34,973 bases of DNA, from positions 1 to 34,973 of the forward strand of contig JACRAM010000079.1 in the NCBI GenBank assembly GCA_016213405.1, in the 5' to 3' direction. Positions 480 through 27,417 of this stretch are shown here, piece after piece (the stretch's first letter is position 1; each line of letters opens with the position of its first letter). The notes below the pieces were generated by a model, which had not been told where the DNA came from, did not search any database, and saw only the letters and a program-made list of their open reading frames with translations. Made by a program: the position numbers and the translations under genes. This DNA comes from Bacteroidota bacterium (GTDB lineage: Bacteria; Bacteroidota; Bacteroidia; Palsa-948).

Positions 480-757
480 CGAATAACAATCCAAGCATGA
501 ACTGGCAAGGAACGAGGGACGAAAGACAAGGGACAAGGGACAACTTAAACAACCGAAGCATCAACTGTAACAACCGAAGCATCAACTGTAGCAACCGAAG
601 CATCATCCGTAACAACCGAAGCATCATCTGTAACAACCGAAGCATCATCTGTAACAACCGAAGCATCATCTGCGATAACCGAAGCATCATCCGTAACAAC
701 CGAAGCATCAACTGTAGCAACCGAAGCATCATCCGTAGCATCCCATCCATAAACTGA
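476..757 (+). CDS. Possible heptapeptide-repeat protein encoded by a 21-bp array
   Basis: A 93-residue open frame whose ATG overlaps the stop of the upstream helix-turn-helix gene (ATGA). Residues about 24-87 are nine tandem heptapeptides of the form [NS]NRSI[IN][CR]. The first 23 residues, rich in N, Q and R, come partly from 7-bp repeats at 512-539. The heptad pattern N-R-S-I resembles N-W-S-V at 7987-8202, which lies in the same relative place before another unusual protein. The complementary strand is also open over this stretch, as expected when the repeat unit is a multiple of three, so coding is not proven. Treat as a candidate only. Confidence 0.3.
   Translation: MTNNNPSMNWQGTRDERQGTRDNLNNRSINCNNRSINCSNRSIIRNNRSIICNNRSIICNNRSIICDNRSIIRNNRSINCSNRSIIRSIPSIN
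512..539. repeat. 7-bp tandem repeat (ACGAGGG/ACAAGGG), 4 units
   Basis: Four in-phase heptamers: ACGAGGG, ACGAAAG, ACAAGGG, ACAAGGG. The consensus is the reverse complement of the CCCTCGT heptamer repeated at 3235-3269, so the same heptamer family occurs twice in this window in opposite orientation. Confidence 0.8.
548..736. repeat. 21-bp tandem repeat array, 9 units
   Basis: Nine consecutive 21-base units without indels. The core ACCGAAGCATCA is constant; variation falls mainly in the last six bases (ACTGT, TCTGT, TCCGT) and the first two. A degenerate tenth unit follows. Units touch each other without spacers, which rules out CRISPR. The length is a multiple of three and of seven. Confidence 0.95.
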
Positions 758-5325: not shown

Positions 5326-5787
5326 TTATTTCTTCTCATCCTTTTCGTCATCATCATCTTTCTGCTCAACTACTTTCTTCATGAAGGTTCCGTTTGCATC
5401 AAAGATCAAATCGCCAGCTTTTACTTCTGCTTCGTAAGTAGTTGTATTTTCTGAGTCAACAATTTTTGATGCCTCTTTGATTTTTTCTCCTGCATAATTT
5501 TTTGAAACATAGTCAGAAACTCCTTTTGGCAGAGCCGAAATATCAATTTCAGTTTCTGTCTCCAACAGGTTTCCGCTTGCGTCAAACAAGCAGGAAGTTT
5601 CTACTTTGTTCACATCGAATTCTGCTTCGTAGTTGGCATCTTCTTTTCCCCATTTCACTTTTGTTACGTTGGGATAAAGTTTGGCAAAACTTGCTTTTAC
5701 TGCAGCGGGAGCATCATCACCGCTAAAAGCAAATGCAGATACTGAGAAGATTCCGAGTAGAATTGCTGCTAAGATTAGTTTTTTCAT
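5326..5787 (-). CDS. Periplasmic PepSY-like protein
   Basis: A 153-residue protein starting MKKLILAAILLGIFSVSAFA, a clear signal peptide cleaved near residue 20. The mature part holds two PepSY-like repeats: VKASFAKLYPNVTKVKWGKEDANYEAEF, followed by conversion of a FDASGNLLETETEI hairpin, and later VSKNYAGEKIKEASKI with TTYEAEVKAGDLIFDANG. This is the PepSY-like (DUF2874) family of Bacteroidota periplasmic proteins. The tail is strongly acidic and basic (QKDDDDEKDEKK). ATG 5787 was preferred over an upstream ATG at 5829 because the signal peptide begins there. It lies 84 bases downstream of a two-component system in the same direction, with its own -7-like element; PepSY-like proteins are often targets of such systems, but that is inference. 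Confidence 0.88.
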   Translation of the reverse strand: MKKLILAAILLGIFSVSAFAFSGDDAPAAVKASFAKLYPNVTKVKWGKEDANYEAEFDVNKVETSCLFDASGNLLETETEIDISALPKGVSDYVSKNYAGEKIKEASKIVDSENTTTYEAEVKAGDLIFDANGTFMKKVVEQKDDDDEKDEKK

Positions 5788-5833
5788 TGTGATTTTGTTT
5801 TTTAGTGTTTGTGTTAGTTTGTTTTTCATAATA

Positions 5834-5871: not shown

Positions 5872-7131
5872 TCAGAAAGAAACAGAAACAGTATGCATTC
5901 CCGCTGCATAGGAATAGTTTATTTTATAATGATACGTGTCGCAGATTTGTTTTACGATAGAAAGCCCAAGTCCGACAGATTCTGATGATGAAGTTCCCTT
6001 TTGAAATCGTTCAAACAGTTTTTCGCCCGGAATGTCAAGCGGGTTTCCTGAATTGGAAACAGTGAGCGTATTACTTTTTAGGTCAATGATTGTTTTTCCT
6101 CCATGGATGTTGTGCTTGATGGCATTTCCGATAATGTTTGAAATCAAAATGTCAGCTAACTGAGCGTTCATCTTAAGTGCAACTCCCTTTCTTTCGGATA
6201 GGGCAGGGAAGAGGTGAAGATGCTTGAACGCAATCATGTCTTCAAACTGCTCCAGTTTTTTCTCTATAATATTTTTCAAATCAATTTGCTGTTCTTCCTG
6301 GAACTGGCGGTTCTCAATTTTTGCAAGGAGCAGAAGTGATTGATTAAGTTTAGACAATCGGTTGGTGCTTTCGTATACATCCTGAATCATCTTCATTTGT
6401 TCCTGAGGGATGTTTTCTGACTGTATCATCAGTTCGAGTTTAGCTCGGATGATGGCAAGCGGTGTTTGAATTTCGTGAGAAGCATTTTCGGTGAACTCCT
6501 TCAGATTCCGGTAGTCGCTTTGCATTTTTTCTGTCATCTTTTTTATTTCTTCGTTCAGCATTTTGAATTCTGAAATGGTGGTTGGCGAAAAGTTCAGCGT
6601 TTCCTTTTTTCCCAGATCAAATTTTCTCAGTCCGTCAAGTGTTTTGTAAAATGGTTTCCACATTTCTTTTGAAAGCCACCAGTTGAGCAGGAATAAAACA
6701 ATCAGCAGTATCCCCGCTACGATGCCTAATGAGTTTGCCACGCTTTCAATCAGGTCGTCCGATTCAACAATGGGTTTTCCTGCTATGGCGGTGAAGAGTC
6801 CTTCATTCGTTTTTACAGAAAATATAAGTTCGCGGTAGGGTAATTCTTCTTCTTCGTATGAACTGTAAAAAAATGTATCTCTTAGTTCATCTTTCACCGT
6901 AATATCTGCCGGGGTGAAGAGGAGCAACTCGCTTCCGACAGAAGGTTGGGCAGGCAGCACTCCGTTTTTTCTTACATAGTCAAGCACTTGTTGCTGCGTT
7001 TGTTCCAGATTTTCAGAAATATTTTCATCAATGATAGTGCGAAGAGAGAAATAAAATATGATTCCGCCAATGGTAAAGAGGAGCAATGTCATAGAGAGAT
7101 AGAGGATGGTTGTTTTGGTGAGCAACTTCAT
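5872..7131 (-). CDS. Membrane sensor histidine kinase
   Basis: A 419-residue kinase. Transmembrane helices lie at about 8-30 and 133-153, enclosing a periplasmic sensor region of roughly 100 residues. A linker resembling HAMP follows, then HisKA with the phosphorylated histidine in FTENASHEIQTPLA (about residue 220) and an HATPase_c domain with the N box NIIGNAIKHN, a shortened G1 region (VSNSGNPLDI) and G2 GLGLSIVKQ. It should phosphorylate the response regulator encoded just upstream, with which it overlaps by four bases (ATGA), so the pair is co-translated. The acidic YSSYEEEELPY stretch in the sensor region could bind cations, though this is inference. Confidence 0.95.
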   Translation of the reverse strand: MKLLTKTTILYLSMTLLLFTIGGIIFYFSLRTIIDENISENLEQTQQQVLDYVRKNGVLPAQPSVGSELLLFTPADITVKDELRDTFFYSSYEEEELPYRELIFSVKTNEGLFTAIAGKPIVESDDLIESVANSLGIVAGILLIVLFLLNWWLSKEMWKPFYKTLDGLRKFDLGKKETLNFSPTTISEFKMLNEEIKKMTEKMQSDYRNLKEFTENASHEIQTPLAIIRAKLELMIQSENIPQEQMKMIQDVYESTNRLSKLNQSLLLLAKIENRQFQEEQQIDLKNIIEKKLEQFEDMIAFKHLHLFPALSERKGVALKMNAQLADILISNIIGNAIKHNIHGGKTIIDLKSNTLTVSNSGNPLDIPGEKLFERFQKGTSSSESVGLGLSIVKQICDTYHYKINYSYAAGMHTVSVSF

Positions 7132-7805
7132 TGCGCGGAAAATTTGTATCCCATTCCGTAAACTGATTTAATGTAATCATCTCCTCCGGCATCTGTTATT
7201 TTTTTGCGGAGGTTTTTTATGTGCGAGTAAATGAAGTCAAATGAATCTGCCATGTCCATTTCGTCTCCCCAGATGTGTTCGGCAATGGATTCTTTGGTCA
7301 CTACTCTGTTTTTGTTGGAGAGGAAGAACAAAAGCAGGTCAAATTCTTTTTTGGTGAGTGTTGTTATTTTTCCATTCACAAAAACTTCCTGCTTATCGGG
7401 AATGATTTTCAGTTTTTCAAAAACTATTTCATTGCTTCCTTCAAAGTTTCTCCTTCGGAGAACGGAATTGAGGCGGGAGTTGAGTTCTGCCAGATGAAAG
7501 GGTTTGGTGATATAGTCATCTGCGCCTAAATCCAACCCGACAATTTTATCATCAAGAGAGTTTTTAGCCGAGATGATGATGATACCTGTTTTGGAATTGT
7601 TCTTCTTTAAGGTTTTCACAATGTCAAGTCCGCTTCCGCCCGGCAGACCGATGTCAATGAGTGCGCAATCGTATTTATACAGGGAGACTTTTTCATCGCC
7701 TGAGGAGAAATTTTTCACCCATTCGCAAACGTGCCCTTCCTTTTTCAGAAAAGCAAGAACCGATTCGCCAAGTGCGGTTTCGTCTTCTACCAATAATATC
7801 TTCAC
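7128..7805 (-). CDS. OmpR/PhoB-family response regulator
   Basis: A 225-residue regulator. The receiver domain starts VKILLVEDETALGES and carries the acidic pair ED, the phospho-acceptor aspartate in CALIDIGLPG (about residue 50), a conserved Ser in IIIISAK and the Lys in YITKPF. A winged-helix effector follows (EFDLLLFFLSNKNRVVTKESIAEHIWG, then the wing VYGMGYKF). GTG 7805 is chosen because the receiver begins exactly there; the open frame runs further upstream through unconserved sequence. A -7-like TATCTTTA lies only four bases before it. It is the partner of the overlapping kinase and a likely regulator of the PepSY-like gene downstream. Confidence 0.95.
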   Translation of the reverse strand: MKILLVEDETALGESVLAFLKKEGHVCEWVKNFSSGDEKVSLYKYDCALIDIGLPGGSGLDIVKTLKKNNSKTGIIIISAKNSLDDKIVGLDLGADDYITKPFHLAELNSRLNSVLRRRNFEGSNEIVFEKLKIIPDKQEVFVNGKITTLTKKEFDLLLFFLSNKNRVVTKESIAEHIWGDEMDMADSFDFIYSHIKNLRKKITDAGGDDYIKSVYGMGYKFSAQ

Positions 7806-7939
7806 GCAGTAAAGATAAAGAAATGATTCTGGAGGGATTTTGGAGGTTATTTTGTTTGGGATGGGTTGCCCCTTTTTTCCCCTCTCCCTTTGTTGAGCTA
7901 CGCTCACAACCTACGGTTGTCCCAAAGTGGAGGGAATGT

Positions 7940-8191
7940 TTTCGAAATAGAATATTTATGTTTCGATTGAAAGTATTGATGTTTTGATGGAAGATATTAT
8001 GTTTTCGATAGAGAATATTGGCTTTGAGATTGTGAATTGGAGCGTTCAGATTAGGAATTGGAGCGTTCAGATTAGGAATTGGAGCGTTCAGATTGGGAAT
8101 TGGAGCGTTGGGATTGTAAATTGGAGCGTTGGGATTGTGAATATTGCCTTTCCGATTACGAATATTGGCTTTCCGATCACCGTTTGGCGCG
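7940..8191. repeat. 21-bp repeat array, 12 units
   Basis: Twelve consecutive 21-base units with no net indel. The central units are nearly identical (TTCAGATTAGGAATTGGAGCG at 8045 and 8066); the outer ones are degenerate but keep the GATT...AATATTGG pattern. Such a gradient, freshest in the middle, is typical of arrays growing by internal duplication. The unit has little in common with the 21-bp unit at 548-736. Confidence 0.92.
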
Positions 8192-8202: not shown

Positions 8203-8233
8203 TGTTCTATCCTAATCAAAAAAACTATTGAAC

Positions 8234-9244
8234 ATGGCACTTACAGAACCTCGTCCGAAACCGGAATATAGCTGCACGCAGCAGGAACTTTATCAGATTT
8301 GTTTGCTGATATGGTTTTCTTATCTTGAAAATGTGGCTGACTTTGCAGCTGAGAACACGAATTATGATGTGGCTTTTGGGAATGCGAACATCGCTGCTGT
8401 GAAGGCGGCAAAGGCGATGCCTGATTTTCAACAGCGGGATGAGGCGAGTGAAACGCTCGGGGTTGAGTTGAAGGAGGGGGCTGATGAGTGCCTTATCAAA
8501 TGGCAGAGTTTGGAGGGGTATATTAAAAAGGGTTTTAAGGAAAAACTTTGGAAGACGAAATTGGAGGGCGCGGGCAGTACGCATTATGAGAAGGCGGGTG
8601 AGAATAATTGGGAGGAAGTAAGTGCGCTGATGGAGGCGGGGAAAAAATTTATTGCAGATAATGGGGCTACGTTGACGAGCCCGGGTGGAATGCCTTCGGG
8701 ATTTGCGGGGGCAACGGGTTTGTTTGAAACAGCGAGGACTACTTTTGATGGTTTGTTTGAGCAGTTTAAGGATGCGCAGCAGGATAATGAGGAGCAGGGG
8801 GATGCGAAGGTGAAGGCGAACAATGCTTTGGATAAGGCGGTGGCTTTGCTGGATGAGGATGGTCAGAAAATTTATAGGAAGAATGGGGCGAAGCGTGAGC
8901 GTTTTACTTTTTCGAGTGTGAAGGAATTGGTGAGTGGTGCGGGTGCGAGTACGAAGACGGTTGTGATTGCTGCGGGGACGAGTGAAACGGTGACGGGCGT
9001 GAGGGCTAATTCTCCGATTACGAATATTTCTGAAACTGCGGTGCGTGTGTGTTCGGGGAGCAGTCCTTGTGCTGTGCCTCCACCTGTACCTCCTTTGCCT
9101 GCTACGCGTGCTACGAATGTGGTTTTGAATCCGGATGATGTGATTGCGAATACGTTTGGTTCAACGATTACGTTTACGAATGGGGATGGGGTGAATGGGG
9201 ATGGGGTGAATGGGGCGGAGGTGACGGTGCGGGTGACGAGTTAG
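8234..9244 (+). CDS. Helical plus beta-sandwich protein of unknown function
   Basis: A 336-residue protein with no signal peptide. Residues 1-230 are largely helical and charged (KEGADECLIKWQSLEGYIKK; DAKVKANNALDKAVALLDED). Residues about 240-336 look like a beta-rich domain (TKTVVIAAGTSETVTGV, then STITFTNGDGVNG), separated by a proline-rich linker PPPVPPLPA. The family is not recognised. Start ATG 8234 is chosen over a TTG two codons upstream. Codon use is unusual: most third positions are G (GCG, GTG, ACG, GGG), and the coding strand is strongly G-rich, unlike the neighbours. A 15-bp repeat near the end encodes NGDGV twice. It follows a 21-bp array, as does the gene at 835. Confidence 0.75.
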   Translation: MALTEPRPKPEYSCTQQELYQICLLIWFSYLENVADFAAENTNYDVAFGNANIAAVKAAKAMPDFQQRDEASETLGVELKEGADECLIKWQSLEGYIKKGFKEKLWKTKLEGAGSTHYEKAGENNWEEVSALMEAGKKFIADNGATLTSPGGMPSGFAGATGLFETARTTFDGLFEQFKDAQQDNEEQGDAKVKANNALDKAVALLDEDGQKIYRKNGAKRERFTFSSVKELVSGAGASTKTVVIAAGTSETVTGVRANSPITNISETAVRVCSGSSPCAVPPPVPPLPATRATNVVLNPDDVIANTFGSTITFTNGDGVNGDGVNGAEVTVRVTS

Positions 9245-9303: not shown

Positions 9304-9335
9304 AAAAGGCGTTCTGGATTTTCGGAACGCCTTTT
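9304..9335. terminator. Bidirectional rho-independent terminator
   Basis: AAAAGGCGTTC (9304-9314) pairs perfectly with GAACGCCTTTT (9325-9335) around a ten-base loop. It has T-runs on both strands and lies between two convergent genes (ending at 9244 and 9360). Confidence 0.9.
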
Positions 9336-9359: not shown

Positions 9360-11306
9360 TTACTGAATGATAATTTTTTCAGTAAATAGATTTTCTTTGC
9401 TTATTATTTTTATGAAGTAGATACCTTTTGATTTATCGGATAAATCAATTGTTAATTGTTGATTGACTATTGATGATTGATATACTTTTTCTCCGAGGGG
9501 GTTGTAGATTTCTAAATGGTAGTTAACATCTCCTAATTCATCTTGCTCTGGGATTTGAATGGTGAATTTGCCGTTAGATGGATTTGGGGCAATTGATGCG
9601 TTAATAATTCGTGTTGAATCAATAATATTATCATTCTCGTATTCATCTTCATACTCATATTCTGTCTCTCCATCCATTGTTCTCATAGGAGTACAAGGGG
9701 TTGGGGGCGGTATAGAAACAACAGCATTAGGTTCAATACTGAATATTGAATTAGGCGTAACAGCGACAATATCACCTGCCTGAAAAGTGAAATCAGCACC
9801 TGATTTTACAACTAAACCAGGGCATGTTGGACTGCTGAGTGTAATAATTGTTGAAGACCTTAACACTATTGAATTATTTGGTTGATAATTGCCTGCTGGC
9901 CAATAGTCTCCACATAAATCAGTAAGAGAAAAATAACAATATACTTCTCCACCGGGAATTCCTATGGTCGCTCCACTAACAGGATTTAAGGTCTGTCTGA
10001 CGCTTTGTTTTGCAAGCCAGAAATTTCTAAACTTACCATAGAAATCAGGTCCGGTAATAGTGCATCCAGAAGATCCACCTGATAATGCACCAATTACTCT
10101 CTGGTTAAAATTATAAAATGGTGAACCAGAAGATCCCTTCTCAGTTACACCATTTGTCCAAAAAACTCTATAGCGTGTAGCAAAATTACCTACGGTCAGG
10201 AAATTTGCACGGGATATTTTTTTGTCATCACCTTTCGGATGATGAATACCATAATATTGGGCTTGAAAAGGTATTTGAACTGACGTAGACCAGCCGGAAT
10301 AATAAACATTAAAGTGAGGTGGTGGTTTTGCATTCATCTTCAACAATGCTTGATCCAATACATAACTATCAGCAATAAATTGAGCACCTTGTACAGGATG
10401 TTCATAATGATAACAAATGGAAGGGGGAGCACTACAATTGGGACGAGAGTAGTTAAAAAAGAAAGTAAGAGAAGTTAAATCCATTAAAGCACCACCTCCA
10501 GTACTACCTTCATGTATGCAATGATTAGCTGTATAAAAAACAGGGTCAAGGAAATTTTTATTAGAATGTGTTTGATTTAACAATGTACCCGTACATTGAC
10601 CTTCTTCCCCAATCATCATGAATACTGATCTTACAAGTTTATCCTGCACGCCAGAAGGAACAGAATATGGAATACAATAAACTTCATCATTGCATGATAA
10701 TGCATCATTTCCAAAAAAACATCCAAATCCTTGAGGATTTGTAGGTTCAATTGTCTTTATATTTTCCATAGGGTTAATAAATCCATATGTAATGCTTTCA
10801 ATTAAAAGAATAGATAAGTTATTAATTGAATCTGGTTGAAAGTAAACTAATGTAATAAAATCAGAGGGCAATAAGCTCCAAAAATATTTACCATGTTGCT
10901 GATTATTATATTCTGTTAATGGATTGTCTATTAAATCATGTTGTTCATTGTAAGCATATAAAACCGCACCATTTATTAAAGAAAAATTTTTAAACTTCAC
11001 ACCAATAGTATTTGCTCCAGAAGATTTTATTTTCAAACAAAATAATTTTCCATTGTTTGGTACATTAAAAAAAGTAGCAACATTGAAAAAATTAATTTCA
11101 ATCGGTATTTTGACGCCATATCTATAGGTTTTATAATTTTTTATAGAATCAAAATCAATGTTAGGGGCAGGAACAGTAATGGTATTAATAGTGTTCCAAT
11201 TACTATCCAATGTATTATATATTTCAGAATTAATTGTTGGTTGTCCGTATAAGTGAATTATAAAGCAATTAATTATACTAAAAAATGAGATGATTTTCTT
11301 TTTCAT
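9360..11306 (-). CDS. Secreted trypsin-like serine endopeptidase with T9SS sorting domain
   Basis: A 648-residue exported protease. A signal peptide (1-21, ending LYG-Q) precedes a propeptide-like region (22-200) and a lysyl-endopeptidase-type S1 domain (about 205-440). The catalytic triad is visible: His262 in YTANHCIHEG, Asp318 in SYVLDQALLKM, and Ser393 in TEKGSSGSPF. Numerous cysteines suggest disulfides. A linker with an acidic run (YEYEDEYEND) leads to a type A T9SS sorting domain (572-648: SIAPNPSNGKFTIQI ... GIYFIKI). It should cleave proteins on the cell surface or outside. Last of four tightly spaced genes, 12 bases after the preceding one. The AT-rich composition is shared with the two genes upstream. 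Confidence 0.93.
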   Translation of the reverse strand: MKKKIISFFSIINCFIIHLYGQPTINSEIYNTLDSNWNTINTITVPAPNIDFDSIKNYKTYRYGVKIPIEINFFNVATFFNVPNNGKLFCLKIKSSGANTIGVKFKNFSLINGAVLYAYNEQHDLIDNPLTEYNNQQHGKYFWSLLPSDFITLVYFQPDSINNLSILLIESITYGFINPMENIKTIEPTNPQGFGCFFGNDALSCNDEVYCIPYSVPSGVQDKLVRSVFMMIGEEGQCTGTLLNQTHSNKNFLDPVFYTANHCIHEGSTGGGALMDLTSLTFFFNYSRPNCSAPPSICYHYEHPVQGAQFIADSYVLDQALLKMNAKPPPHFNVYYSGWSTSVQIPFQAQYYGIHHPKGDDKKISRANFLTVGNFATRYRVFWTNGVTEKGSSGSPFYNFNQRVIGALSGGSSGCTITGPDFYGKFRNFWLAKQSVRQTLNPVSGATIGIPGGEVYCYFSLTDLCGDYWPAGNYQPNNSIVLRSSTIITLSSPTCPGLVVKSGADFTFQAGDIVAVTPNSIFSIEPNAVVSIPPPTPCTPMRTMDGETEYEYEDEYENDNIIDSTRIINASIAPNPSNGKFTIQIPEQDELGDVNYHLEIYNPLGEKVYQSSIVNQQLTIDLSDKSKGIYFIKIISKENLFTEKIIIQ

Positions 11307-11318
11307 TTTTAAAAATAT

Positions 11319-11819
11319 TTAAAATGAGTAACCAATACTTATACCTCCCCATATATAAAACAGACCCAACAAATATGCTCTTCCATTATCTACTTCAATA
11401 AGGGGTGTATAATTCATTCGAAACAAAAAATGATTTTTTATGTATTTATAACCAATTTGACCAGAAATAAATGGATTTATAATAAATTCATCGTACAGTG
11501 AATAATCTGAATTTAATGTAGTGCCAATACCAAGTTCCATGTGATGAATTTTGTTTTTCGATAAGCTTCTATTGTAATTAAATAATATGGGTAAAGTAAA
11601 TTCAGTTTTCGGGTCTTTATATAAAGCAAAACCTATGCGCATAGAAAAATTATTTTTATAAGAATCCCATATATTTCTTTCATAGTTTAAAGAATAACTT
11701 AATCCGTTACCTCCCAATTCAAGAAATACATTATTTTTTTTTAATAATGAATCGCTACTATTTCTCGCAGAAGACATTATGGTAAATGAGATAAGTATAA
11801 TCAAAAACAAATATTTCAT
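11319..11819 (-). CDS. Putative small outer-membrane beta-barrel protein
   Basis: A 166-residue protein with an N-terminal signal peptide (MKYLFLIILISFTIMSSA). The mature part shows alternating polar and hydrophobic strands (FLELGGNGLSYSLNYERNI, MELGIGTTL, GQIGYKYIKNHFLFRMNYTP) and ends with aromatic GGISIGYSF, as do eight-stranded barrels of Bacteroidota. The family is not recognised. It directly abuts the lipoprotein gene upstream (no gap) and precedes the protease by 12 bases, so the genes are surely cotranscribed. AT-rich relative to most of the window. Function unknown. Confidence 0.7.
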   Translation of the reverse strand: MKYLFLIILISFTIMSSARNSSDSLLKKNNVFLELGGNGLSYSLNYERNIWDSYKNNFSMRIGFALYKDPKTEFTLPILFNYNRSLSKNKIHHMELGIGTTLNSDYSLYDEFIINPFISGQIGYKYIKNHFLFRMNYTPLIEVDNGRAYLLGLFYIWGGISIGYSF

Positions 11820-12323
11820 TTAAATACTCTTAACAATAAATTTTACAGTATATCCTTGCGGCAGTTTTGGGACTAATACCCAATTCCAACTCATTTGTAG
11901 TTTCTTACAAATACCACATTCATTTACACCTATTGTATATATATACATTTTTTCGTCATCATTTTTTTGCACTTCCCGAATAAACTGAACATCACATCCC
12001 CCCTCTGTATACTTGCCTAGTAATGTATATGTGTTAAAATCAATTGGAGTAACAACCTCACTACTGCATTGTGGGTTATAGAATAAATCGGATGTGTCAA
12101 TCCATGATTTGTAAACGCTGTCGTTATCAATTACAAATTCATCAACCATTGGATATGATAAGGATTGCCCTAACTTGAAACAATTACTACTAATACGAAA
12201 TTCTGATGCTATGATACCTAAGTGTTCATCTTCATTACTACTTCTTAGACATGGTTTCACGCAGCCAGTAAAATGAAAATACAAGCATAGCGAAAAAAAT
12301 ATCAAGCAAAGAAGTTTCATCAT
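11820..12323 (-). CDS. Putative lipoprotein of unknown function
   Basis: A 167-residue protein. The N-terminus MMKLLCLIFFSLCLYFHFTGC is hydrophobic and ends in a lipobox-like FTGC, so lipidation at Cys21 is likely. Seven further cysteines (including CGIC near residue 138) suggest disulfides or metal binding. No family recognised. Two adjacent ATG codons (12323 and 12320) are possible starts. It lies nine bases after the fibre-like gene and abuts the next gene. The AT-rich composition is shared with the two genes downstream. Confidence 0.65.
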   Translation of the reverse strand: MMKLLCLIFFSLCLYFHFTGCVKPCLRSSNEDEHLGIIASEFRISSNCFKLGQSLSYPMVDEFVIDNDSVYKSWIDTSDLFYNPQCSSEVVTPIDFNTYTLLGKYTEGGCDVQFIREVQKNDDEKMYIYTIGVNECGICKKLQMSWNWVLVPKLPQGYTVKFIVKSI

Positions 12324-12332
12324 TTATATTAT

Positions 12333-14402
12333 TTATTGTTCCTTTTCTAGTTTTTCTATTCTTTTAGAAAATAATTTTAATTGTTCTTTCAAAATAATAT
12401 TCTCATCCTGTAATTTTTGATTTGATTTATGTAAATCAATTACGTCAAGCCATAGTTCCTCAACATTCATTGTAATGCCCTTCATGGTTTCGGGAACATC
12501 AAGCCCGTTGGTAATAATATCATTTCCAGATTTTAAACCATCTAAATGCTTATTTTTTCTAAGTGATTTTTCTCTTTCTTCGTATGTTTTTCTTTTGTGA
12601 TCTTTTTCAAGTACATAATCAGCCCAGTCAGCTAGTTTTGTAACATAAAATTCCTGAGAAACAAATTTGCCTCCAACAGAAAGCATCGCATTAGAATGGG
12701 CACCTGTTGGTTTTTGAGTGCCAATGCGAACTTGTCCGTTGGCACCAATAACCATCAGAGTTGTATTGCCGTTTCCATTCTTAAAATTAAAAGCAGATGG
12801 GGACTGGAAAGAATGAATATAAAAATTTACATCACCATTAGGGTCATTATCTACAGAAATACCTCTCCTTGTAGGAACAGCGTTATTACCAAGTATCTCA
12901 AATGAATTTAATACTTGATAATTATTATTAGCGTCATAATTTACAAGAGAAACATCGCCTTGTACAGTTAATTTCTTGTAAGGAGAAGAATTTCCTATTC
13001 CAACCTTGCCGTCATTTGTGATTACCACCGCATCAATCCAGTTTATCTGTCCGTTAGTATGCACCGGAAGAACTCCTGATGTTTGAAAAATCATCTTTCC
13101 ACCAGAAATTGGATCGCTGGGATCACTGTTGAAACGAATCGCATTTGCATATCCATTGATAAGTGTTACATCGTTTGTTCCATCAAAATATGCATTGTGA
13201 AAAATGGCTTCGGTTCCACCGTCATGAAAAGCAAATGCATTTCCTATTTGTAATTTTTCTTTGGGGGTATTATTTGGAGTTGAAAGACCTATTCCGGCAT
13301 TGCCTGTTATCCCATCAATTGTCATCAGAGTTTTAGCGGGAGAAAAATATCCATTTTTGAAATTAAATGCAGAGGGACCCTGATTAGAATTTATATAAAA
13401 GTTGAACGAACCATTTGGGTCAGGGTCTAAACCTATACCTCTTCTTGTCGGTTGCTGATCCATGCCGAGTATTTCCAGTCCACTAAAACCATCGCCTGGA
13501 TTTCCACCACCACTTGTGTTGTAATTTGCAAGTGAAACATCTCCATTGACAGTTAACATTTTATAAGGGGTGGTTGTTCCAATTCCAACATTACCAATCG
13601 AGGTAATACGCATTTTCTCAGCAGTAGTTGGATTAGCAGTTACATCTGTTTTGAAAATCAAATCAGCAGTATTAAGTGTGCCAATAAAATCATTCGGTGC
13701 AATGGTGTTGCCCTGCACTTCCCAAGATGCTGCTAATGGCACAAAAGAAGAGATTTTTAAATTTCCGCTCGCATCAGCAGCAAGAATTCTGTCTCCTGTT
13801 CCGGTTAAATTACTTACTGCAACAGAAGAAAATGTTGCGCTTGAATTTTGCTGAACTCCTGCGGTTGTTTGCACCGTGCCATCAGGAAATTTAAAACCTC
13901 CTAATGTGCTTTGAATTGTTCCTTCTACTGTAAGTTTTTCAGAAGGAGAGAAAGTTCCTATTCCGACTTTGCCGATGTTACCGGCATTAATAATTGTGTT
14001 ATTATCATTTGGAGAAAATATTACAGTGCTGCTATCACAAATCATACTACCACCACCTTGTTGACCGCTAGTAGGAGGAATGATAATGCATGTAACTTGA
14101 GTGACCGTATCTGCTGTTTGAATGCGCAATTCTCCGTCATCACGCATAGCGCCTTTTTCGGTAACGACCAGTGAATTCTTACCTACTTTCAGCAGTTGAA
14201 CGCTATCGCGGGTGGCTGTGGTTTGAAATGTTCCGTCAGGAAATAATAAAGTGTCTGTTTTGGTAATTCCTTTTACTTCTAATTGCGTTGTTGGAGTGGT
14301 TGTTCCAATGCCTGCATTACCGCTTGAAGGAAATGTATTTTGTGCGTTAAGGAAATTTGCACCACAAAGGAGCAAAATAACCGGAAGTAATAATTTTTTC
14401 AT
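12333..14402 (-). CDS. Secreted fibre-like repeat protein with C-terminal coiled coil
   Basis: A 689-residue exported protein; signal peptide MKKLLLPVILLLCGANFLNA. At least six copies of a G-x-[AV]-G-I-G-x-x-x-P motif (GNAGIGTTTP, GKVGIGTFSP, GNVGIGTTTP) each precede a short beta-strand unit such as KLTVEGTI or LTVNGDVS. These repeats are common in Bacteroidota surface proteins and resemble phage tail-fibre shafts. The C-terminus has a conserved-looking stretch FYVTKLADWADYVLEKDHKR, a helical YEEREKSLRKNKHL and a long coiled coil (ELWLDVIDLHKSNQKLQDEN onward) ending KLEKEQ, likely to trimerise. ATG 14402 fits the signal peptide and a strong promoter; an upstream ATG exists at 14471. First of a four-gene run. 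Confidence 0.85.
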   Translation of the reverse strand: MKKLLLPVILLLCGANFLNAQNTFPSSGNAGIGTTTPTTQLEVKGITKTDTLLFPDGTFQTTATRDSVQLLKVGKNSLVVTEKGAMRDDGELRIQTADTVTQVTCIIIPPTSGQQGGGSMICDSSTVIFSPNDNNTIINAGNIGKVGIGTFSPSEKLTVEGTIQSTLGGFKFPDGTVQTTAGVQQNSSATFSSVAVSNLTGTGDRILAADASGNLKISSFVPLAASWEVQGNTIAPNDFIGTLNTADLIFKTDVTANPTTAEKMRITSIGNVGIGTTTPYKMLTVNGDVSLANYNTSGGGNPGDGFSGLEILGMDQQPTRRGIGLDPDPNGSFNFYINSNQGPSAFNFKNGYFSPAKTLMTIDGITGNAGIGLSTPNNTPKEKLQIGNAFAFHDGGTEAIFHNAYFDGTNDVTLINGYANAIRFNSDPSDPISGGKMIFQTSGVLPVHTNGQINWIDAVVITNDGKVGIGNSSPYKKLTVQGDVSLVNYDANNNYQVLNSFEILGNNAVPTRRGISVDNDPNGDVNFYIHSFQSPSAFNFKNGNGNTTLMVIGANGQVRIGTQKPTGAHSNAMLSVGGKFVSQEFYVTKLADWADYVLEKDHKRKTYEEREKSLRKNKHLDGLKSGNDIITNGLDVPETMKGITMNVEELWLDVIDLHKSNQKLQDENIILKEQLKLFSKRIEKLEKEQ

Positions 14403-14441: not shown

Positions 14442-14471
14442 CAAATGTATGCTCGAAATAGAATTTGTCAA
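14442..14471 (-). promoter_or_regulatory. Promoter of the four-gene exported-protein operon
   Basis: Minus-strand TTGACAAA (from 14471) and TACATTTG (14449-14442) match the Bacteroidota -33 TTG and -7 TAnnTTTG elements with 19 bases between them. The start codon is 40 bases further on. This is the best complete promoter seen in the window. Confidence 0.7.
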
Positions 14472-25281: not shown

Positions 25282-25438
25282 TACGTTGAACTTTCAAAGT
25301 TCACCATCAAAAATCTGCAACCCTCTGATAATAGCAGCGACTCAGTAATGAACAACTCCCCGTTAATTGTTAAGTTTTTCTCATCGAACGGGAATAAAAT
25401 CAATTGTTACATTCGTTGAATTATTTTGGCTGAAGAGT

Positions 25439-26077
25439 ATGACTTTCGAAAACCTACTCACAAAAATTGATGACGGTGTATTTACTATTACCATTAACCG
25501 CCCCGATAAACTTAACGCATTGAACAAACTCACGGTGCAGGAACTCGGAAGGGCAATACAGCACGCTAAAGAAAATACGGATGTAAAAGCCATCATCATA
25601 ACAGGTGCCGGCACGAAAGGTTTTGTGGCGGGAGCAGATATTGCTGAATTTATCGGACTCTCTCCTTCAGAGGCAAAATCAATGGCAACAGAAGGACAGC
25701 GTGTTTTCAAATCCATAGAAGATTGTCACAAGCCGGTGGTTGCCGGAGTGAATGGTTTTGCGCTTGGTGGTGGTTGCGAACTTGCCATGGCATGTCATCT
25801 GCGTGTGGCGAGCGACAACGCAAAGTTCGGGCAGCCGGAAGTGAACCTCGGTTTAATTGCGGGCTATGGCGGGACCCAACGACTCATACAGTATATCGGC
25901 AAAACAAAAGCTATGGAACTTCATCTTACGGGCGATATGATTACAGCAGATCAAGCACTTGAACTCGGACTGGTGAATTATGTTACCACGCAGGAGCAGC
26001 TTATTTCAAGGTGCATTGAAATTATTAATACAAAAGAAATGGTTCATCCAAATTACAGAAATATATATGGAAATTAA
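25439..26077 (+). CDS. Enoyl-CoA hydratase/crotonase, C-terminally truncated
   Basis: A 212-residue crotonase close in sequence to the 259-residue paralogue at 26638. The oxyanion-hole motif (AGADIAEF) and both catalytic glutamates (GGGCELAMACH and FGQPEVNLGLIAGYGGTQ) are present, so the hydratase chemistry of 2-enoyl-CoA could be retained. The paralogue continues through KSPKAVGGAIVAMNAFF and a C-terminal helical region; this one diverges after SRCIEIINTKE and ends with unrelated HPNYRNIYGN. The last helices help trimer formation and cover a neighbouring active site, so function is doubtful. ATG 25439 aligns with the paralogue start. It overlaps the MaoC gene by 11 bases. Confidence 0.88.
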   Translation: MTFENLLTKIDDGVFTITINRPDKLNALNKLTVQELGRAIQHAKENTDVKAIIITGAGTKGFVAGADIAEFIGLSPSEAKSMATEGQRVFKSIEDCHKPVVAGVNGFALGGGCELAMACHLRVASDNAKFGQPEVNLGLIAGYGGTQRLIQYIGKTKAMELHLTGDMITADQALELGLVNYVTTQEQLISRCIEIINTKEMVHPNYRNIYGN

Positions 26078-26620: not shown

Positions 26621-26637
26621 TTAAACAAAAAGTTTTT

Positions 26638-27417
26638 ATGACTTTCAAGAAATTGCTCACTAAAATAGAAAATGGAATTCTTACCATCACCATTAACCGA
26701 CCTGCGAAACTGAATGCATTGAACAAAGGCATGGTTCTGGAAATCGGACAGGCGATAAAATGGGCAATCGAAAATCCGGATGTAAGAGGCATCATCATCA
26801 CCGGTGCGGGTAATGAAAGTTTTGTTTCGGGTGCAGATATTACTGAATTTACAGGAAAAACTCCTGAGGAAGGAAGGGCGATGGCGCAGTTGGGGCAAGC
26901 CACTTTCAAATCAATAGAAAATTCTCCCAAACCGGTTATTGCAGCAGTGAACGGATATGCTCTTGGCGGTGGATGCGAACTGGCAATGTCATGCCACTTG
27001 CGTGTGGCAAGTGAAAATGCAACGTTCGGTCAGCCGGAAGTTAGCATTGGTGTGATTGCAGGTTATGGAGGAACTCAGAATCTCATCCAGTGCATCGGCA
27101 AAACAAAAGCAATGGAACTGCATCTCACAGGCGATTGGATTTCTGCAGAGCAGGCGTTGAAATTCGGTCTGGTAAATTATGTTACCACGCAGCAACAACT
27201 CATTCCAAAGTGCGTGGAGATACTTGAAAAAATAAAAACCAAGTCTCCCAAAGCGGTGGGCGGTGCCATTGTAGCCATGAACGCCTTTTTTAAGGACGGA
27301 GTGGATGGATTTCAGGTAGAAGTGAACGAGTTTGGAAAATGTTTTTCCTATGAAGATGTAAAAGAAGGCACTGCAGCGTTTATTGAAAAAAGAAAACCTA
27401 ATTTTACGGGGAAATAA
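26638..27417 (+). CDS. Enoyl-CoA hydratase/crotonase
   Basis: A full-length 259-residue crotonase. The oxyanion-hole region SGADITEF and catalytic glutamates in GGGCELAMSCH and FGQPEVSIGVIAGYGGTQ are present, and the C-terminal helices (VGGAIVAMNAFFKDG, KEGTAAFIEKRKPNF) are intact. It should hydrate short-chain 2-enoyl-CoA esters to (S)-3-hydroxyacyl-CoA in beta-oxidation or butyrate-type metabolism. ATG 26638 fits the family start MTFKKLLTKIENGILTI; the frame extends upstream only through the inverted repeat. A paralogue truncated at its C-terminus lies upstream across the MaoC gene. Confidence 0.95.
   Translation: MTFKKLLTKIENGILTITINRPAKLNALNKGMVLEIGQAIKWAIENPDVRGIIITGAGNESFVSGADITEFTGKTPEEGRAMAQLGQATFKSIENSPKPVIAAVNGYALGGGCELAMSCHLRVASENATFGQPEVSIGVIAGYGGTQNLIQCIGKTKAMELHLTGDWISAEQALKFGLVNYVTTQQQLIPKCVEILEKIKTKSPKAVGGAIVAMNAFFKDGVDGFQVEVNEFGKCFSYEDVKEGTAAFIEKRKPNFTGK

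What the first reader, a model, noticed from the sequence alone, without database searches (positions are those of the whole stretch)
9360..14402. Four-gene envelope operon: fibre-like protein, lipoprotein, barrel, T9SS protease
The four genes are separated by only 9, 0 and 12 bases, follow one good promoter (TTGACA, 19 bp, TACATTTG) and all have export signals. A fibre with GIG..P repeats and a trimerising coiled coil, a Cys-rich lipoprotein, a small barrel-like protein and a lysyl-endopeptidase-like protease look like a surface assembly with its own maturation enzyme. I know of no such described module.
Basis: partly seen in the sequence, partly recalled or inferred. Interest (0 to 1): 0.6.

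Follow-up and report, generated by a model that had tools for sequence, protein, structure and literature searches.

The report
Mosaic surface-fibre and secreted-protease operon
This stretch of a Bacteroidota-type genome holds an operon that pairs a phage-tail-like surface fibre with an enzyme exported by the type 9 secretion system, and the same pairing, with swapped fibres and swapped secreted proteins, recurs in many related bacteria, which points to an undescribed modular surface system.

Summary
Four minus-strand genes (fibre, lipoprotein, small barrel, Lys-C-type protease with a T9SS C-terminal domain, CTD) lie 9, 0 and 12 bases apart behind one Bacteroidota-type promoter. The grouping recurs. 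Of 83 fibre genes sharing the conserved C-terminal domain (own genome plus relatives), 57 have a CTD protein among the next four same-strand genes, against 26 of 207 other exported genes (Fisher 1.5e-20). The window's core order, fibre, lipoprotein, T9SS serine protease, is kept in 6 of 19 lipoprotein-family loci from four families. Barrel homologues lie behind fibres in 10 of 36 cases (about 0.04 expected). 'Fibre with its own maturation enzyme' is not supported as a general reading: at most 11 of 57 partners carry a recognised peptidase domain. The fibre's shaft resembles Bdellovibrio MAT fibres (8ond, E 1.1e-10), and paralogous fibre genes share 90-97% identical DNA blocks that usually stop before the cargo. 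Best reading: a modular fibre-plus-exoprotein surface cassette. How the fibre crosses and attaches to the outer membrane is unknown.

The parts
14442..14471 (-). Bacteroidota-type promoter TTGACA-16-TACATTTG (TTG-19-TAnnTTTG)
   Evidence: consensus type recalled, not tested
12333..14402 (-). fibre gene, 689 aa: signal peptide, seven GIG..P-like motifs, repeated tail-fibre-like modules, C-terminal coiled coil; no T9SS CTD, no S74 motif
13882..14348 (-). 467-bp block of the fibre gene 95.3% identical to the fibre gene of the paralogous cassette on contig C71; identity ends sharply (mosaic)
12336..12647 (-). conserved C-terminal domain of the fibre (WxDYVF...HLP...EE) plus long C-terminal helix; AlphaFold pLDDT 94.7
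11820..12323 (-). lipoprotein gene, 167 aa, seven Cys in the mature part (counted by eye); family beside T9SS serine proteases in part of its members
11319..11819 (-). small (166 aa) outer-membrane-barrel-like protein ending in GYSF
9360..11306 (-). T9SS-exported Lys-C-type serine protease gene, 648 aa
10011..10697 (-). S1 lysyl-endopeptidase-like catalytic domain (aa 204-432; TANHC 259, LDQALL 317, GSSGSP 391)
9363..9593 (-). T9SS type A C-terminal sorting domain
9304..9335 (.). stem-loop terminator shared with the convergent gene (T-rich on both sides by eye; the scan lists it on +)

Best explanation
The locus is one copy of a modular surface cassette. The first gene makes a phage-tail-like trimeric fibre related in its shaft to the MAT adhesins of Bdellovibrio. 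The last gene makes a large exoprotein exported by the T9SS. Zero to three small exported proteins lie between. The fibre probably supplies binding to a target (cell, glycan or surface) and the T9SS protein the activity at that target; here that is a Lys-specific protease, and the lipoprotein is probably the protease's dedicated partner (envelope-side inhibitor, chaperone or anchor). Cassettes diversify by exchange of fibre blocks and replacement of the cargo. Shown: operon layout, conserved synteny, catalytic residues, sorting domain, mosaic fibre DNA. Inferred: trimer, surface display, physical or functional coupling, role of lipoprotein and barrel.
For: 57 of 83 fibre genes are followed by a CTD protein against 26 of 207 other exported genes and 47 of 455 any genes; 2 of 52 on the upstream side. 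24 of 28 genomes holding these fibres have at least one such operon. Second, named sample: 28 of 153 against 7 of 270. Six of 19 lipoprotein-family loci keep fibre, lipoprotein, T9SS serine protease in four families. 10 of 36 barrel homologues lie behind fibres. Median gap from fibre to next gene 16.5 bases. Fibre shaft matches 8ond. Mosaic blocks in most genomes with two or more fibres. PorV family, five copies over cut-off in the own genome; PorY-family kinase in the window.
Against: In the wider phylum sample only 26 of 88 fibre operons have a CTD protein; 28 stand alone, and many others are tandem fibre arrays followed by giant ORFs. Of 19 lipoprotein-family loci, 11 have neither a fibre nor a T9SS serine protease adjacent, and 26 of 36 barrel homologues are not behind a fibre. 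No binding, export or complex was measured. No PDB fold match at E 0.001 or better for the fibre's C-terminal domain or the lipoprotein.
Confidence: 0.55

Rival explanations
1. The protease is the fibre's own maturation enzyme, cutting it at Lys during surface assembly.
For: Lys-C-type protease with the aligned catalytic residues in the same operon; Lys-C-type T9SS proteases recur behind fibres in L068, L274, L275 and L279.
Against: The T9SS partner changes freely: at most 11 of 57 carry a recognised peptidase domain, the rest other or no known domains. The five partners of other fibres of the same genome that were scanned singly have no Pfam peptidase hit, though the C58 partner is a distant homologue of the window protease. 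No special Lys pattern in the fibre.
Confidence: 0.1
2. The lipoprotein works with the protease and not with the fibre: an envelope-bound inhibitor or immunity protein against its cognate T9SS serine protease.
For: In all 6 fibre-lipoprotein-T9SS loci the exoprotein is a serine protease (five S1 Lys-C-like, one S8), and two further members lie within two genes of a T9SS S8 protease without a fibre (L069, L272).
Against: 11 of 19 family members have no T9SS serine protease adjacent; no fold match to a known inhibitor. The few weak ecotin rows (E about 1 or above, probability 0.05 or less) are noise.
Confidence: 0.35
3. The T9SS protein is the carrier: the fibre, which has no sorting domain, crosses the outer membrane through the T9SS pore bound to its CTD-bearing partner.
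For: The fibre has an export signal but no CTD; a CTD protein follows it in most operons of the window's relatives whatever its enzymatic domain; in RHS versions a small YD-motif+CTD protein stands beside a giant without a recognised CTD.
Against: 28 of 88 operons of the named sample have no same-strand partner and many others no CTD gene; no physical evidence.
Confidence: 0.2
4. Mere co-transcription of unrelated surface genes from a strong surface promoter.
For: The genome is CTD-rich (150 matches with the scoring cap reached); barrel and lipoprotein families occur elsewhere too.
Against: Enrichment is directional and far above other exported genes; three-family synteny across four families although the lipoproteins are only about 20-40% identical.
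Confidence: 0.2

Closest known systems
MAT (mosaic adhesive trimer) fibres of Bdellovibrio bacteriovorus (PMC10769870)
   Same: Beta-helical shaft sequence (8ond, E 1.1e-10), capping-loop-like G..P motifs, several copies per genome, members that share one part and have exchanged another.
   Different: Here the kept part is a C-terminal domain with a coiled coil, and the operon carries a T9SS exoprotein and small envelope proteins. The main text of the MAT paper holds neither 'operon' nor 'lipoprotein'.
T9SS type A cargo proteins
   Same: Signal peptide plus C-terminal sorting domain over cut-off.
   Different: Here the cargo gene is coupled in an operon to a fibre that has no sorting domain.
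Lysyl endopeptidase / Achromobacter protease I (S1)
   Same: Residues 204-432 align at E 2.5e-23 with His, Asp, Ser and the Lys-selecting Asp in place (residue roles recalled).
   Different: Fused to a T9SS tail; the His of the enzyme's GQLHGG segment is Ser here (alignment).
Phage tail fibres and S74 fibres
   Same: PHROG tail-fibre hits.
   Different: No S74 SDxxxK motif, no S74 Pfam hit.

Membership tests
MAT superfamily | beta-helical shaft with capping loops, homologous to solved MAT fibres | tested here: met
   8ond E 1.1e-10, 8ol4 and 8oml weaker; GIG..P motifs
MAT superfamily | conserved ~130-aa beta-rich domain right after the signal peptide (PMC10769870 section 10) | tested here: inconclusive
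   first GIG motif already at residue 30, but no MAT N-terminal sequence was at hand to compare
MAT superfamily | mosaic: one part shared, the rest exchanged between paralogues | tested here: met
   467 bp at 95.3% then no match, and similar blocks in other genomes
MAT superfamily | trimer displayed on the cell surface | not testable with these tools
   needs experiment
S74 fibres | C-terminal S74 domain with SDxxxK | tested here: not met
   no motif, no PF13884 hit
T9SS type A cargo | C-terminal sorting domain over curated cut-off | tested here: met
   TIGR04183 49.0 bits against 23
T9SS type A cargo | T9SS present in the genome | tested here: met
   PorV family 442 bits, five copies over cut-off; SprA and GldM searches were blank in the controls too and say nothing
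S1 lysyl endopeptidase | His/Asp/Ser triad and Lys-selecting Asp | tested here: met
   alignment to 4nsy; motif positions; residue roles recalled
S1 lysyl endopeptidase | cleaves after Lys | not testable with these tools
   needs an enzyme assay
Trimeric autotransporter (YadA type) | C-terminal YadA anchor barrel | tested here: not met
   no such Pfam hit; the C-terminus is a long helix
PorP/SprF T9SS partner barrels | PorP/SprF family match of the barrel gene | tested here: not met
   166 aa, no such hit in Pfam or NCBIfam

The most novel reading that the evidence does not exclude
Bacteroidota possess a modular, MAT-like fibre system assembled through the T9SS: the CTD-bearing partner (enzyme, adhesin, or in RHS versions a small YD-motif adaptor) carries or co-assembles with the CTD-less fibre, so that fibre and effector reach the surface as one swappable unit.
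Probability: 0.2. Interest if true: 0.85.

Novelty: new variant of a known kind. Interest (0 to 1): 0.55.

Why it matters
T9SS cargo is usually treated gene by gene. A recurrent fibre-first operon would give a rule for predicting which secreted proteins act together, would extend mosaic fibres of the kind known from a bacterial predator to a large phylum, and raises a testable question about how a fibre without a sorting domain reaches the surface.

Tried and rejected
Rejected: S74 fibre, YadA autotransporter, PorP/SprF barrel. Lipoprotein fold: AlphaFold pLDDT 79.7 from an alignment of 10 rows, two of which (L128, L115) are probably not homologous; no Foldseek match at E 0.001 or better and a best Z of 3.4 among a few Bacteroides lipoproteins, some NigD-like; nothing concluded. 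Fibre C-terminal domain: pLDDT 94.7, no PDB match at E 0.001 or better; the weak first row is a Bdellovibrio fibre over 37 columns; PDB profile search gave only weak, scattered rows. SprA and GldM searches were blank with blank controls.

Papers: searches found no description of a fibre-T9SS operon. Seen: PMC10769870 abstract, sections 10, 12, 16 and passages; PMC10994853 passages; PMC9478572 passages (reference list only); the rest as search listings. The library lacks most subscription papers, so absence is weak evidence.

Limits of the counts: genes were called by a simple ATG longest-ORF script; 86 of the 97 C-terminal-domain matches were read (7 own, 3, 76), 11 weak or fragmentary ones were not fetched, and 3 loci read (L182, L184, L185) gave no recognised fibre ORF. 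In one search the same 57 were counted of 77 after leaving out 6 loci cut short by a contig end. Relatives are not independent; no tree correction was made. Of the 19 lipoprotein-family loci all were read; in L274 the ORF caller missed the lipoprotein and the protease frame is broken, so it was read frame by frame. The A4 scan held 33 of the 43 non-CTD downstream proteins.
Full report
What is there. The window is contig C79 of a 3.65-Mb, 127-contig genome. On the minus strand four genes run from 14402 to 9360 with gaps of 9, 0 and 12 bases, behind TTGACA-16-TACATTTG, a promoter of the Bacteroidota form (consensus recalled) found once where 0.05 is expected, and ahead of a stem-loop terminator. 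The gene before the promoter is atpA-like (Pfam ATP-synt_ab); behind the operon lies a convergent gene of unknown family.

The proteins. Gene 1 (689 aa) has seven GIG..P-like motifs, tail-fibre PHROG matches, and a stretch matching Bd2133 (PDB 8ond, E 1.1e-10), with weaker matches to further Bdellovibrio fibres. These are MAT fibres according to PMC10769870 (sections 10, 12, 16 read). Its last ~105 residues are a domain without a Pfam or NCBIfam model, modelled at pLDDT 94.7 with a 53-residue C-terminal helix and without a PDB match at E 0.001. Gene 2 (167 aa) is a lipoprotein of a small family; gene 3 (166 aa) is barrel-like by its family. Gene 4 is an S1 protease of lysyl-endopeptidase type (4nsy, E 2.5e-23) with a T9SS type A sorting domain. 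The genome has PorV-family proteins and at least 150 sorting-domain matches, the scoring cap.

Conserved synteny. The own genome holds seven genes with the fibre's C-terminal domain. Six are followed by a CTD protein; the seventh (C119) runs into the contig end after a barrel-family gene. The domain occurs in 30 of 60 genomes searched. Of 83 fibre genes read, 57 have a CTD protein among the next four same-strand genes (first 24 times, second 21, third 8, fourth 4), against 26 of 207 other exported genes and 47 of 455 other genes in the same loci (Fisher 1.5e-20 and 3.1e-28), and 2 of 52 on the upstream side. 24 of 28 genomes have at least one such operon. Upstream of the fibre, 37 of 83 have an opposite-strand gene or a gap over 250 bases, 31 end at the contig edge, and 15 have a same-strand gene close by.

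A second sample of 80 named loci (Flavobacterium, Tenacibaculum, Chitinophaga, Pedobacter, Chryseobacterium and others, chosen by a closer version of the domain) gives a weaker picture. 28 of 153 fibres against 7 of 270 exported genes have a CTD protein downstream (4e-8); at operon level it is 26 of 88, with 28 fibre operons alone and 26 of 89 operons being tandem fibre arrays. So the coupling is strong around the window's lineage and partial in the phylum.

The window's own combination. Barrel homologues: 10 of 36 matches in the 60 genomes lie within 5 kb behind a fibre, about 0.04 expected from a rough estimate. Lipoprotein family: 19 matches in 16 of 395 class genomes. Six, the window included, have the order fibre, lipoprotein, T9SS serine protease: the window, L067 (S8), L068 (S1), L275 (S1), L279 (S1, with one small gene between), and L274 (S1, protease frame broken), from four families. 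The protease of L279 matches the window's at 6e-76, L068 at 6e-49, L274 at 1e-32, L275 at 1e-30. Two more (L069, L272) lie within two genes of a T9SS S8 protease without a fibre. The remaining 11 do not (L074 has a large T9SS protein with PKD repeats on the other strand). I read this as a fibre-lipoprotein-protease core that has been kept while the lipoprotein drifted to about 20-40% identity.

Cargo and mosaicism. Of 57 T9SS partners, 53 match Por_Secre_tail; peptidase domains (trypsin-like, M4, S8, C10, M43, M12, M23) account for at most 11, the rest being PKD, BNR and other or unknown domains. So a maturation role for the cargo cannot be general. Fibre genes of one genome share DNA blocks: C79 and C71 467 bp at 95.3%, C123 and C58 366 bp at 95.4%, C58 and C119 280 bp at 93.9%, and similar blocks in most other genomes with several fibres; they usually lie within the fibre gene and do not extend into the next genes, with exceptions such as L169/L171, L119/L129 and L173/L176. 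The MAT paper describes the same kind of exchange between Bd2133 and Bd1334.

Interpretation. The best-supported account is a modular surface cassette in which a tail-like fibre provides binding and a T9SS-exported protein provides an activity. In this copy the activity is predicted Lys-specific proteolysis, and the lipoprotein is most likely the protease's partner. How the fibre reaches and holds the surface is open. A carrier role of the CTD protein is the boldest reading left standing. The RHS versions (a YD-motif+CTD protein of 139-194 aa beside a giant without a recognised CTD) are a hint in that direction, not proof. I found no description of this module, with the limits of that library.

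Noticed in passing
L124, L142, L145, L169, L172, L212, L228 (relatives): In RHS-type fibre cassettes a 139-194 aa protein made of a signal peptide, one YD/RHS motif (YDxxGN) and a T9SS CTD sits next to an RHS-like giant ORF (in L228 a 512-aa ORF that was not tested). The complete giants of L169 and L172 have no T9SS tail by Pfam. It looks like a trans-acting sorting adaptor for RHS proteins.
   Followed up: partly
window 5872-7907: A PorY-family histidine kinase (NF052314, 480.9 against 350 bits) lies directly beside an OmpR-type response regulator, followed by a PepSY-like protein gene at 5326-5829.
   Followed up: no
window 8027-8142 and 8228-9244; L061 5563-6510: A 338-aa protein of unknown family beside 21-bp tandem repeats has a homologue (6.8e-40) on contig C24, also beside a repeat and next to barrel-family genes.
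   Followed up: no
window 548-737: Nine copies of a 21-bp tandem repeat at 89% match.
   Followed up: no
window 25438-26022 and 26637-27221: A 586-bp segment repeated at 74% identity, probably duplicated coding sequence.
   Followed up: no
own genome contigs C126, C123, C58, C119, C24: Several fibre or barrel cassettes are whole short contigs of 4-7 kb, as expected if near-identical fibre blocks break the assembly; paralogue numbers may be underestimated.
   Followed up: partly
L115, L128, L157, L162, L186 and contig C95 (603-1013): A second lipoprotein type (start like CKKYPDGP) recurs in fibre cassettes.
   Followed up: no
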